A DNA stretch of 64,000 nt from Nitrosomonadales bacterium. GTDB lineage: Bacteria > Pseudomonadota > Gammaproteobacteria > Burkholderiales > Gallionellaceae. Location: NCBI GenBank assembly GCA_016214695.1, contig JACRNY010000001.1, positions 1,178,001-1,242,000 of the forward strand, read 5' to 3'. Below the pieces are notes generated by a model. The model was not told the DNA's origin and did not search any database. It worked only from the letters and a program-made list of their open reading frames with translations. Numbering within the stretch: position 1 is the stretch's first letter; each line of letters starts with the position of its first letter. Both the position numbers and the translations under genes were made by a program. This document shows positions 6,345 to 12,337 of this stretch, in pieces.

Positions 6345-9044
6345 ATGGCATCCAACCTGCTGATCGTCGAGTCTCCGGCCAAGGCCAAGACCCTGAAGAA
6401 GTATCTCGGCAAGGACTTCGAAGTCCTCGCTTCCTACGGCCACGTGCGCGACCTCATCCCCAAGACCGGCGCGGTCGACCCCGACGACAACTTCGCGATG
6501 AAGTACGAGACCATCGCGCGCAACAGCAAGCATGTGGACGCGATAGCCAAAGCCGCAGCGGATGCCGACAACATCTTCCTGGCGCCCGACCCGGACCGCG
6601 AAGGTGAGGCGATTGCCTGGCACATCTCCGAGATTCTGAAAACCAAGCGCGCGCTCAAGGGCAAGAAGATGCAGCGCGTGGTGTTTTACGAGATCACCCA
6701 GTCGGCAGTGCAGGAAGCCGTCGCGCATCCGCGCGAGATCTCCATTCCGCTGGTGAATGCGCAGCAGGCGCGCAGAGCGCTGGACTATCTGGTCGGTTTC
6801 AATCTCTCGCCGTTGCTGTGGCGCAAGATCCGTCCCGGACTTTCCGCGGGTCGTGTGCAAAGTCCCGCTCTCCGACTGATCGTCGAGCGCGAGCTGGAGA
6901 TCGAGAAATTCAAAAGCCAGGAATACTGGTCTGTGCATCTGGATAGCCAGAAGAACAGCATCCCGTTCAAGGCCAAACTGTACCAGTTCCAGGGCAAGAA
7001 ACTTGAGCAACTCAGCATCGGCAGCCAGGCCGAGTACGATGCTATCCATGCGAAGCTGGCCGACGCCAAGCTGCCGCCTAAAGTGGTGCGCGTGGAGAAG
7101 AAGGGCAAACAGCGCAGCCCGGCCGCACCGTTCACCACTTCGACATTGCAGCAGGAAGCTGTGCGCAAACTGGGCATGACCTCGGATCGCACCATGCGCA
7201 CTGCGCAGTCGTTGTACGAAGGCGTGGACATCGGTGGCCAGACCATCGGTCTGATCACCTACATGCGTACCGACTCGGTGAATCTGGCGAACGAGGCCGT
7301 CGCCGAGATACGCCAGTATATCGGCGACAATTTCAGCAGCGAGTACCTGCCGGCCAAACAACCGGTCTACAAGAGCAAAGCCAAGAACGCGCAGGAAGCA
7401 CACGAAGCGATCCGCCCGACCTCGGTGCTGCGCACGCCGGACAGCCTGCGCGACCATTTGAACATCGACCAGATGCGCCTGTACGAGATGATCTGGAAAC
7501 GCACGCTCGCATCGCAGATGTCGCCTGCGCGTTTTGACACCGTGAGCGTCGATATCCGTTTGAGTAGCGACGACACCTTGTTCCGCGCCTCCGGCCAGAC
7601 GCTGGTGTTCCCCGGCTTCATCGGCGTGTACATGGAAGACGTGGACGACGCGGAAGAAGAAGACAGCGCCAAGCTACCGCCGCTGGTCGAGGGCGACGTG
7701 CTGCCCGTGGACAAGCTCTACGGCGAGCAACACTTCACCCAGCCGCCGCCGCGCTTCTCCGAAGCCAGCCTGGTGAAGGCGCTGGAGGAATACGGTATCG
7801 GCCGTCCTTCCACTTACGCCACCATCATCTCCACGCTGCAGGCGCGCGAGTACGCCACGCTGGACAAGAAACGTTTCATGCCCACCGACGTCGGTCGCGT
7901 GGTGATCAAGTTCCTCAACGAGCACTTCACGCGCTATGTGGACTACGGTTTCACCGCCAATCTCGAAGACGAGCTCGACGACATCTCCGAGGGCAAGCGC
8001 GACTGGATACCGGTGCTGGATGAATTCTGGAAAGGCTTCAATAAGCTCATCGGCGAAAAGAAGGACGTCGACCGTCCCGGCACCGAGATACTGGAAGAAG
8101 CCTGCCCCAAGTGCGGCAAGCCCTTGTCCAAGCGCCTCGGCAAACGCGGCAGCTTCATCGGTTGCACCGGCTACCCCGAGTGCGACTACACGCGCAGCTT
8201 GGCGGAAGAAGATGCAGGCGAAGCGCGCCGCGAACTCGGTCATCATCCCGAGACCAACCAACTCGTGCTGCTGTTGCGCGGACCTTATGGTCCCTACGTA
8301 CAACTCGGCGAAGTGGAAGAGGGCGCGAAGACCAAACCCAAGCGCGTCTCCTGGCCAAAAGAATTGCCTCTGGAGAACGCCGATCTCGGCTCGGCGCTAA
8401 AGCTGCTCTCGCTTCCAAGAGAAGTCGGCACTCACCCCGAAACTGGCAAGAAGGTCATTGTCAACATCGGCCGCTTCGGTCCCTACATCGGCCATGACGG
8501 CAAGTTCAAGTCCATCCCGCGTACCGACAGCATCTTCGACATCGGTCTGGATCGCGCCGTGGAACTGCTGGCCCAAGCCCGCACCGGCGGCGCCACCGTG
8601 CTGCGCAATCTGGGCGAACACCCGGACGACAAGGCACCCATCGAAGTTTGTAGCGGACGCTATGGTCCCTACGTGCGCCACGGCAAGATCAACGCCACCC
8701 TGCCCAAGGACGTGACGCCGGAGGCGGTGACACTGGAAGAAGCGCTGGAGATGATCGCCGCCAAGGCAGCGAAGGGCGGTACTGGCAAAGCGAAGACCGC
8801 GAAGAAACCGGCAGCAAAGAAAACCGCGGCCAAGAAGACCACCAAGGAAAAAGCGGTCGCCAAACCCAAGGCAACGGTGAAGAAGGCGACGGCGAAAACT
8901 GCGGCAGAAAAACCTGCGGTCAAGAAAACTACCAAGACTTCGACGACCAAAGCTAAGACGACGACAGCGAAAACAGCCACCAAAAAAGTCGCCGCCAAAC
9001 CTGCCGCAAAGAAACCTGCAGCCAAGAAGACCACCAAGAAATAA
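6345..9044 (+). CDS. topA: DNA topoisomerase I with lysine/alanine-rich tail
   Basis: 899 codons. It relaxes negative supercoils by single-strand cleavage. TOPRIM domain at the N-terminus (LLIVESPAKAKTLKKYLG; LAPDPDREGEAIAWHI with the DxDxxE metal site); catalytic Tyr306 lies in GLITYMRTDS. One four-cysteine zinc ribbon (CPKCGKPL ... CTGYPEC) is followed by topoisomerase C-terminal repeats (RFGPYIGHDGKF, RYGPYVRHGKI). Residues about 806-899 are a low-complexity Lys/Ala/Thr tail resembling histone H1, probably for extra DNA binding. A hairpin follows the stop directly. Confidence 0.98.
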   Translation: MASNLLIVESPAKAKTLKKYLGKDFEVLASYGHVRDLIPKTGAVDPDDNFAMKYETIARNSKHVDAIAKAAADADNIFLAPDPDREGEAIAWHISEILKTKRALKGKKMQRVVFYEITQSAVQEAVAHPREISIPLVNAQQARRALDYLVGFNLSPLLWRKIRPGLSAGRVQSPALRLIVERELEIEKFKSQEYWSVHLDSQKNSIPFKAKLYQFQGKKLEQLSIGSQAEYDAIHAKLADAKLPPKVVRVEKKGKQRSPAAPFTTSTLQQEAVRKLGMTSDRTMRTAQSLYEGVDIGGQTIGLITYMRTDSVNLANEAVAEIRQYIGDNFSSEYLPAKQPVYKSKAKNAQEAHEAIRPTSVLRTPDSLRDHLNIDQMRLYEMIWKRTLASQMSPARFDTVSVDIRLSSDDTLFRASGQTLVFPGFIGVYMEDVDDAEEEDSAKLPPLVEGDVLPVDKLYGEQHFTQPPPRFSEASLVKALEEYGIGRPSTYATIISTLQAREYATLDKKRFMPTDVGRVVIKFLNEHFTRYVDYGFTANLEDELDDISEGKRDWIPVLDEFWKGFNKLIGEKKDVDRPGTEILEEACPKCGKPLSKRLGKRGSFIGCTGYPECDYTRSLAEEDAGEARRELGHHPETNQLVLLLRGPYGPYVQLGEVEEGAKTKPKRVSWPKELPLENADLGSALKLLSLPREVGTHPETGKKVIVNIGRFGPYIGHDGKFKSIPRTDSIFDIGLDRAVELLAQARTGGATVLRNLGEHPDDKAPIEVCSGRYGPYVRHGKINATLPKDVTPEAVTLEEALEMIAAKAAKGGTGKAKTAKKPAAKKTAAKKTTKEKAVAKPKATVKKATAKTAAEKPAVKKTTKTSTTKAKTTTAKTATKKVAAKPAAKKPAAKKTTKK

Positions 9045-9069
9045 GGCCTGGGATTTTCGTCCCAGGCCT
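9044..9069. terminator. Hairpin between topA and the TIR-like gene
   Basis: A perfect 10-base stem (AGGCCTGGGA / TCCCAGGCCT) with loop TTTTCG begins at the last base of the topA stop codon. It has no T tract on the plus side; on the minus side a T-rich TTATTTCTT follows. It sits between convergent genes and may act as a weak two-way terminator or an mRNA end stabiliser. The rest of 9070-9177 holds nothing I can name. Confidence 0.6.
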
Positions 9070-9177
9070 ACCCCTTACCGACGTCCTGAAAATCGTTTGT
9101 AGCGCGTTTTGAGCGGTCTACGCTGGAAAGCCCGTGGTTATTGGCTTACATCAAATCTATTATGATCCTGGTACCGT

Positions 9178-9834
9178 TCACAATTTAGGAAAATACTTTG
9201 TTCCTCTTGTGTTTCCTGTAGCGCTTAGCCTCACTCCAACTTCATTTCGAATTGCAAGTTTTGCTAGTTCAATATTAACGCCGACTGCCGGAGCAATGGT
9301 CGTTACACCAATGTTCGGTGTTTTTGTTACGAGCTCGACTATCTTATCTTGAAGGCGAGAGAGAAATGACTCCGCTTCCTCATTCCTTGGTGGTGGAAGA
9401 ATTTGCGATATTAGTCTTTCGAGTTCTTCTTCCAGCGACGTAAAGGATTTGTATTGAAGCCTGTCGACCCCTTTTAAATCTGAGGGTACATCCGACATCT
9501 CTGTTTGTTCTGGATTGAGAGAGATGAATACGCGCTCACCCATGCCCAGCGCTAATCCCAATTCTAAGGTGACGTTTGGGTTCCATGCTGTGATGTCGTA
9601 GATTCCGAACTGAGATTCTCGAATGTAATTCGCAATTTTCTGCAAAATATGCAGAGAGGAAATTTTCTCGTCGGCAAAAACAAAGTCAACATCAAATGCT
9701 TTACCTACACTTTCGAAAGCGCGCCGATAGTCCTTCTTATCGATGTGTCTGTAGCTATATGCAACGAAAACCTGACGTGGCTTTTTCGCTTGGGTCGACA
9801 GTGAAACATCAATGAATGTATCTTGCGAGGGCAT
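9178..9834 (-). CDS. TIR/NDT-like Rossmann domain protein with predicted C-terminal winged helix
   Basis: 218 codons from ATG 9834, preceded by a good AAGGAAAG ribosome site. Residues about 20-145 form a Rossmann-type domain starting QVFVAYSYRHIDKKDYRRAF and carrying FGIYDITAWNPNVTLELGLA; the NPNVxxELG pattern, with candidate catalytic Glu91, recurs in TIR-like and nucleoside deoxyribosyltransferase-like domains that attack or bind nucleotides. Residues about 152-218 resemble a winged helix (VTTIAPAVGVNIELAKLAI, then LSATGNTRGTKYFP as the wing). It is visibly richer in A/T than its neighbours (a 60-base line at 9241 is 42% G+C), suggesting acquisition. It lies 40 bases downstream of gyrB on the same strand, so it may be co-transcribed with gyrB. 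Defence effector or nucleotide-responsive regulator are both possible. Confidence 0.7.
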   Translation of the reverse strand: MPSQDTFIDVSLSTQAKKPRQVFVAYSYRHIDKKDYRRAFESVGKAFDVDFVFADEKISSLHILQKIANYIRESQFGIYDITAWNPNVTLELGLALGMGERVFISLNPEQTEMSDVPSDLKGVDRLQYKSFTSLEEELERLISQILPPPRNEEAESFLSRLQDKIVELVTKTPNIGVTTIAPAVGVNIELAKLAIRNEVGVRLSATGNTRGTKYFPKL

Positions 9835-9874
9835 CAGCTTTCCTTATTCGTCAGCATCAAACGAAGTATGAAAT

Positions 9875-12337
<2,463 letters not shown>

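What the first reader, a model, noticed from the sequence alone, without database searches (positions are those of the whole stretch)
9178..9834. TIR/NDT-like domain fused to a winged helix, inserted behind gyrB
The protein pairs a Rossmann domain bearing NPNVxxELG (candidate catalytic Glu91) with a C-terminal segment that looks like a winged helix ending RGTKYFP. The gene is visibly AT-richer than gyrB and topA on each side and lies 40 bases downstream of gyrB on the same strand. TIR-like and deoxyribosyltransferase-like enzymes often act in phage defence through nucleotide degradation; a DNA-binding C-terminus suggests a regulator that senses a nucleotide, or an effector that acts on the nucleoid. 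Being placed to share the gyrB transcript is unusual.
Basis: partly seen in the sequence, partly recalled or inferred. Interest (0 to 1): 0.72.

Follow-up and report, generated by a model that had tools for sequence, protein, structure and literature searches.

The report
Lone TIR–winged-helix gene behind gyrB
A foreign gene sits right behind an essential gyrase gene in one bacterium; it probably encodes a small protein that destroys the cell's NAD when a virus attacks, and relatives of it are carried by very different bacteria.

Summary
The ORF is real (9178-9834, minus strand, 218 aa, 40 nt behind gyrB) and foreign by composition: GC3 0.41 against 0.754 ± 0.058 for 32 window genes. Of 34 genomes of its genus searched, only this one matched. 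Residues 22-129 are a TIR domain of the CAP12/Pycsar class (PF10137: 24.5 bits whole, 26.0 alone, cut-off 24.7). SfSTING active-site residues N80, E84, D110 correspond to N87, E91, D119. The C-terminal ~70 residues look winged-helix-like, but only through homologues and below curated cut-offs. Six full-length homologues (40-55 %, four phyla) and one frame-broken prophage copy occur as solitary genes in unrelated places: between gltA and sucC, behind an ABC permease, in an integron array, in prophages, one beside PD-T7-4, and in a defence island. Best reading: a mobile one-gene abortive-infection protein, TIR NADase plus winged-helix sensor, probably expressed by gyrB read-through. The gyrB-topA gap is an insertion hot spot in this genus.

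The parts
9178..9834 (-). gene of 218 aa: N-terminal TIR-like domain, C-terminal winged-helix-like domain
   Evidence: full-length homologues, alignment A2
9448..9771 (-). TIR domain, residues 22-129 (PF10137)
9574..9576 (-). codon of N87, counterpart of SfSTING N80
   Evidence: invariant in A3; mapping from the alignment and residues named in PMC9402430 (passages)
9562..9564 (-). codon of E91, candidate catalytic glutamate (SfSTING E84)
   Evidence: as for N87
9478..9480 (-). codon of D119, counterpart of SfSTING D110
   Evidence: as for N87
9181..9396 (-). C-terminal winged-helix-like domain, residues 147-218, ending RGTKYFPKL
   Evidence: alignment A4; HTH_24 in three of six homologues, below cut-off
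9838..9845 (-). AAGGAAAG, probable ribosome-binding site
   Evidence: read from sequence
9868..9878 (.). left copy of imperfect 11-nt direct repeat (ATAGATTTCAT on the minus strand), overlaps the gyrB stop
   Evidence: family D7; 12 of 3000 shuffles as good, tested after it was seen
9150..9160 (.). right copy of the repeat (ATAGATTTGAT), abuts the stretch conserved with relatives
9044..9069 (-). terminator-like hairpin (10-pair stem) behind the gene, before the end of topA
   Evidence: 6 terminator-like sites found, 1.0 expected
9875..12304 (-). gyrB, upstream neighbour on the same strand
   Evidence: GyrB relatives
6345..9044 (+). topA, convergent neighbour
   Evidence: tblastn to relatives

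Best explanation
A horizontally acquired, self-contained anti-phage protein. The TIR domain is a NADase held inactive in the uninfected cell; the C-terminal winged helix senses a phage component, most likely a structural protein that forms a ring or filament, and clusters the TIR domains so that NAD+ is cleaved and the infected cell stops before phage is released. The gene has no partner and lives off its neighbour's transcript: in this genome it sits 40 nt behind gyrB with its own ribosome-binding site and no promoter-like site in the gap. Shown here: the ORF, its foreign composition, its absence from the related genomes searched, a coherent two-domain family, conserved active-site residues, mobile and defence-like neighbourhoods of relatives. 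Inferred: NADase activity, the winged-helix fold of the window protein, its role as sensor, the phage trigger, expression by read-through.
For: TIR class: PF10137 (15 of 16 members of A3 match it at E <= 1); PADLOC CBASS TIR effectors E 4e-6, PycTIR 1.7e-4. Active site: N87, E91, D119 invariant in 16 of 16 and aligned with SfSTING N80, E84, D110 (residues from passages of PMC9402430). Family: six full-length homologues; A2 alignment conserves the C-terminus too (A181, L203, G207, R210, G211, Y214). Defence or mobile contexts of the seven homologue loci: L110 in a cluster with ThsB-like TIR, caspase, TIR_2, 8xMP and, 8 nt downstream on the same strand, an ApeA-like HEPN protein; L203 (same sequence as L202) in a prophage between a gpA-type terminase and a lambda-type portal gene, followed by a full-length PD-T7-4 homologue, E 7.8e-93, PD-T7-4 being one of 21 defence systems found by selection (passages of PMC9519451); L105 between a terminase gene and an integrase gene; L108 in an array with attC sites. 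Transfer: GC3, 1 of 34 genus genomes, tree joins betaproteobacterial window with an alphaproteobacterium at 99/89 and Lysobacter with Desulfatitalea at 99/89. Precedent for the architecture: Swarozyc, TIR-like NADase with a C-terminal HTH/winged domain that binds the phage portal (PMC13174449).
Against: No structure. The whole-protein Pfam score is 0.2 bits under the cut-off. Against solved structures the profile is weak and mixed: PycTIR 0.043, CAP12 0.066, but also DNPH1/Rcl 0.074 and nucleoside deoxyribosyltransferase 0.094. SfSTING R78 is not matched (N85 there). L106, L107 and L109 sit among metabolic or unknown genes, with at most one weak candidate-defence match (PDC-M14B, 8e-8, beside L107). 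No defence gene was recognised next to the window gene itself, though its neighbours were read, not scanned. The prophage copy L203 is frame-broken in that assembly, and L110 lacks the first ~45 residues in frame.
Confidence: 0.6

Rival explanations
1. Same effector, but the winged helix binds DNA: it senses phage DNA or a DNA structure, or anchors the NADase on the nucleoid.
For: Wing motif G-x-x-R-G-T-x-Y conserved in seven of seven rows of A2 at G207, R210, G211, Y214; best matches of a homologue are DNA-binding HTH families.
Against: All those matches are under the curated cut-offs; the domain is close to neutral; the presumed recognition helix is largely hydrophobic (MxQVVVxPLVG in A4), which fits a protein contact better (inference).
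Confidence: 0.22
2. A nucleotide-sensing transcription regulator, perhaps acting on gyrB or its own transcript.
For: TIR/NDT-like domain plus winged helix; position in the gyrB unit.
Against: Absent from 33 of 34 genus genomes and, among six full-length relatives, never beside gyrB; catalytic residues are kept, which a mere sensor would not need; no constant target neighbour.
Confidence: 0.08
3. An NDT/DNPH-like nucleotide hydrolase rather than an NADase, acting on (modified) nucleotides.
For: PF05014 matches 4 of 16 members of A3 (best 7.7e-7); DNPH1/Rcl and NDT appear in the profile search.
Against: The window protein does not match PF05014 at E <= 1 while 15 of 16 members match PF10137; the P-S-D-x-x-G stretch with D119 aligns with CAP12 and PycTIR.
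Confidence: 0.15
4. A stranded passenger with no function in this host, on its way to decay.
For: Foreign composition; one genome only; no own promoter seen; relatives broken or short (L203, L110).
Against: Intact frame, ribosome-binding site, conserved active site, close spacing to a highly expressed gene.
Confidence: 0.1

Closest known systems
Swarozyc (KpSwz; DUF4062, PF13271)
   Same: N-terminal TIR-like NADase with catalytic Glu, C-terminal HTH/winged domain, single protein, horizontal spread (PMC13174449: abstract, outline and Results part 1 of 2 seen)
   Different: Window protein does not match PF13271; Glu sits in NPNVxxELG, not in the DUF4062 motif; no long helical stalk; hhalign of our C-terminus with the C-terminus of one DUF4062 protein (L213, not KpSwz itself) 0.2 %
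CAP12 / SfSTING (TIR-STING) and PycTIR
   Same: TIR class PF10137; N80, E84, D110 matched
   Different: No STING or cyclic-nucleotide-binding domain; no cyclase gene recognised beside it (neighbours read, not scanned); R78 not matched
SpbK (Bacillus subtilis)
   Same: Small single-gene TIR NADase with one sensor domain; passages of PMC12847820
   Different: SpbK has an N-terminal four-helix bundle and a C-terminal TIR: opposite order, unrelated sensor; triggered by the portal YonE
Nucleoside 2-deoxyribosyltransferase / DNPH1 (PF05014)
   Same: Same superfamily fold; ExG motif; 4 of 16 relatives match
   Different: Window protein does not match; has a second domain
Integron-borne phage defence cassettes (Darracq, Kieffer, Getz 2025; titles seen in a reference list only)
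   Same: One relative (L108) is in an attC array, host genome has an integron
   Different: No attC found at the window gene

Membership tests
CAP12/Pycsar TIR domain (PF10137) | profile score over the curated cut-off 24.7 | tested here: inconclusive
   24.5 bits whole protein, 26.0 for residues 1-148 alone
CAP12/Pycsar TIR domain (PF10137) | catalytic Glu in NVxxExG and Asp of PxDxxG | tested here: met
   E91 and D119
TIR NADase | cleaves NAD+ | not testable with these tools
   needs enzyme assay
Swarozyc (DUF4062) | DUF4062 domain (PF13271) | tested here: not met
   no match at E <= 1 whole, <= 10 for domain; own genome none at 1e-8
Swarozyc (DUF4062) | C-terminal HTH/winged domain that binds portal | tested here: inconclusive
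   HTH_24 in homologues under cut-off; no relation to one DUF4062 C-terminus; binding not testable
CBASS or Pycsar | nucleotide cyclase gene beside the effector | tested here: inconclusive
   neighbours read from ORF lists are housekeeping genes; they were not scanned with profiles
NDT (PF05014) | profile match | tested here: not met
   no match at E <= 1
Winged-helix domain | profile match or fold | tested here: inconclusive
   none in the window protein; three of six homologues under cut-off; PDB profile hit 8vd6 is a repeat protein and sums weak HTH-like repeats; structure prediction off
Integron cassette | attC behind the gene | tested here: not met
   none by motif scan or covariance model; only 36 nt separate the stop from sequence conserved with relatives; the scan missed most attC of the own array and the model missed those of L108, so a strange attC is not excluded

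The most novel reading that the evidence does not exclude
A previously unnamed family of one-chain immune sensors in which a ~65-residue winged helix is the entire phage sensor of a CAP12-class TIR NADase, reached independently of Swarozyc's winged portal-binding domain, and which spreads as a bare gene: integron cassette, prophage cargo, or tail of a strong core operon such as gyrB or gltA, whose transcript it borrows instead of bringing its own control.
Probability: 0.3. Interest if true: 0.7.

Novelty: new variant of a known kind. Interest (0 to 1): 0.5.

Why it matters
If true, it is one of the smallest complete TIR immune proteins and would show convergent use of a winged helix as a phage-protein sensor, linking it to the newly described portal-sensing TIR-like NADases. 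It also shows a way for defence genes to escape searches based on defence islands: as single genes behind core operons. The gyrB-topA gap would be a cheap place to look for more.

Tried and rejected
Integron cassette at gyrB: rejected for this copy, with the limits stated in the membership test. BLAST of L108 and own attC against the window and five homologue loci gave only short chance-level matches.

Conserved pre-topA stretch as a mobile repeat: rejected, single copy in the genome; four other places match over 14-22 nt only.

Tn7-like transposon as vehicle: Tn7-type genes lie behind gyrB in G012 and G013, but I saw no such end at the window gene; not settled. The papers consulted on Tn7 target sites (passages) do not mention gyrB.

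Direct-repeat flanks as a target-site duplication: suggestive only (post hoc); no empty site was found in relatives.

First BLAST of gyrB-downstream sequence took minus-strand loci in the wrong direction; redone.

Searches that gave nothing: phages by tblastn, viral contigs with the single protein, genome contigs with the single protein, C-terminus alone in 398 genomes (only the window's own), A2 in 398 genomes at 1e-15 (only its own). Plasmids: 7 records, TIR part only, 27-35 %. In 369 genomes of the class, 11 besides the own matched at E <= 0.001, none past residue 166 of 218. Rows with matches reaching the C-terminus but other architecture (L127, L166) were not counted as members.

Tree: 44 rows chosen from the loci, L118 dropped for want of the motif; all seven two-domain rows are one side of a branch but without support (32/0); the six without L110 82/90.

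Literature: no paper on this TIR-winged-helix combination was listed (the last returned none); open-access library only.

Full report
The gene. Window 9178-9834, minus strand, is an intact 218-aa ORF with a ribosome-binding site, 40 nt behind gyrB; topA converges on it. No promoter-like site lies in the gap: the scan found two in 9000-10100 (1.3 expected), one inside the gene and one on the other strand. A 10-pair hairpin followed by a T-rich tail lies at 9069-9044 behind the gene. So the simplest unit is gyrB plus this gene; that is inference.

Foreign origin. GC3 is 0.411 against 0.754 ± 0.058 (lowest 0.622) in 32 window genes. With the protein as query, 1 of 61 related genomes (34 of the genus, 3 more of the family, 24 more of the order) matched at E <= 1e-5: its own; 16 of the 61 miss the quality mark of 90 % completeness and 5 % contamination used in the tally.

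The site. In 26 other genus genomes with a full-length gyrB locus, topA was found beside gyrB in 18 within 1.5 kb and in 3 more after longer stretches were taken (G010, G003, G023). Of the other five, two carry an island of at least 13 kb without topA in the stretch seen (G012, G013), two end at a contig end within 270 nt (G019, G009), one has another gene there (G002). The content differs: a type I restriction system with TnsA, TniB/TnsC and a TnsB-like protein in G012 and TniQ in G013 (Pfam; the counterparts in the other genome read by eye), a restriction system in G023 (read by eye), other small or unrelated ORFs in G003, G005, G007, G010, and in many no ORF of note. A stretch just before topA is shared: it aligned at score 32 or more in 12 of the 26. 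The window insert ends where that stretch begins, at about 9150. An 11-nt direct repeat with 10 matches brackets the insert and overlaps the gyrB stop; 12 of 3000 shuffles of the two edges did as well, a test made after seeing it.

The TIR domain. PF10137 at residues 22-129; in PADLOC the best are TIR effectors of CBASS (4e-6), PDC-S35 and PycTIR. PHROGs gives only families of unknown function. A profile of 16 relatives finds PycTIR (0.043), CAP12 (0.066), DNPH1/Rcl (0.074) and NDT (0.094) among solved structures, none significant. The alignment printed there sets SfSTING N80, E84 and D110, named as active-site residues in passages of PMC9402430, against N87, E91 and D119; the chain is numbered eight higher than the paper, which fits R78, N80, E84 and D110 alike (my reading). 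N87, E91 and D119 are invariant in 16 of 16. R78 has no match, S10 was outside the alignment.

The C-terminus. Alone it matches nothing in Pfam but a chance-level CinA_KH (0.063), and in 398 genomes of the phylum only itself. Seven homologues share it: A30, L52, G56, R59, G60, Y63 of the domain are invariant (A4). L107 matches HTH_24 at 3.2e-4 and ArsR and MarR families weakly, L108 and L106 HTH_24 at 0.064 and 0.18, all under the curated cut-offs; L105, L109 and L110 match no HTH family. A PDB hit of E 4.4e-7 (8vd6, 'CAP REPEAT') is the sum of five weak repeats, each at a single-domain E-value above 7, and I give it no weight. So a winged helix is likely, not shown.

The family. They belong to four phyla by their record titles. 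Viral contigs gave three relatives, two of them full-length at 39 % and identical to each other over 5,541 nt, so one locus. The tree pairs the window with Ancylobacter (99/89), Lysobacter with Desulfatitalea (99/89) and these with Limisphaerales (100/96), against host kinship.

Contexts. Window: behind gyrB. L106: 7 nt behind gltA (citrate synthase, 4.3e-132) and 4 nt before sucC (ATP-grasp and CoA-ligase domains), same strand. L109: about 100 nt behind a binding-protein-dependent permease. L108: in an array of small same-strand genes with attC sites GCCTAAC...GTTAGGC (three found by scan, two more seen by eye); an integrase was not looked for there. L105: between a terminase large-subunit gene, 3.9 kb away, and an integrase gene. 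L203: on the strand opposite to the head genes, between gpA-type terminase and lambda-type portal, followed by a PD-T7-4 homologue matched over 1-209 of 211 positions; the TIR gene there is frame-broken and 79 % identical in DNA to that of Lysobacter. L110: with ThsB_TIR, caspase, TIR_2, 8xMP and an ApeA-like HEPN protein starting 8 nt downstream. L107: unknown genes, one with a weak PDC-M14B match. So of seven homologue loci, two carry recognised defence genes next door, two lie in prophages (L203 counts in both), one in an integron array, two behind metabolic operons, one among unknown genes.

Mechanism. TIR NADases of this class work by clustering; in Swarozyc a C-terminal HTH/winged domain of the same chain binds the phage portal and so activates the TIR-like domain (PMC13174449, Results part 1 read), and in SpbK an N-terminal bundle does so (PMC12847820, passages). 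The window protein has the same layout as Swarozyc with a different TIR class and no detectable kinship of the C-terminus to one DUF4062 protein (single sequence, low power). I therefore commit to a one-chain sensor-effector, with a phage protein as the likelier ligand than DNA, because the helix that would read DNA is hydrophobic in the family and the domain nearly neutral. Both points are inference.

Verdict. It is a new variant of a known kind.

Noticed in passing
G000:C4:136539-137480 and L192:4531-9926: The host genome has an integron integrase (494 bits, cut-off 265) with an array of about eight attC sites; a partial second integrase lies at the start of contig C2.
   Followed up: partly
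L045, L046 (behind gyrB in G012, G013): Tn7-type genes (TnsA, TniB/TnsC, TnsB-like, TniQ) with a type I restriction system directly behind gyrB: gyrB may be a Tn7-like attachment site in this genus.
   Followed up: partly
first ~25 nt behind gyrB in 8 of 26 genus genomes (L010, L011, L013, L014, L021, L022, L026, L027): Shared TGTAGGTTCTCA, perhaps a transposon end or an old terminator; present in the three genomes with restriction islands and in five without.
   Followed up: no
L203:3950-5425: Prophage cargo of two genes, a TIR-winged-helix copy (frame-broken) and a PD-T7-4 homologue, between terminase and portal genes, with a GGCGTCAGGTC stretch between the two genes that recalls attC ends in L108.
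   Followed up: partly
L110:516-6994: Compact conflict cluster in an Actinomycetota MAG: ThsB-like TIR, caspase, TIR_2, 8xMP, TIR-winged-helix, ApeA-like HEPN.
   Followed up: partly
L114, L115, L117, L119: A sister group (Planctomycetota, FCPU426, Omnitrophota) with the same TIR class and another conserved C-terminal domain with RGT-x-x-R motif.
   Followed up: no
L213: A 344-aa DUF4062 protein whose C-terminus looks winged by eye, a possible Swarozyc relative.
   Followed up: no
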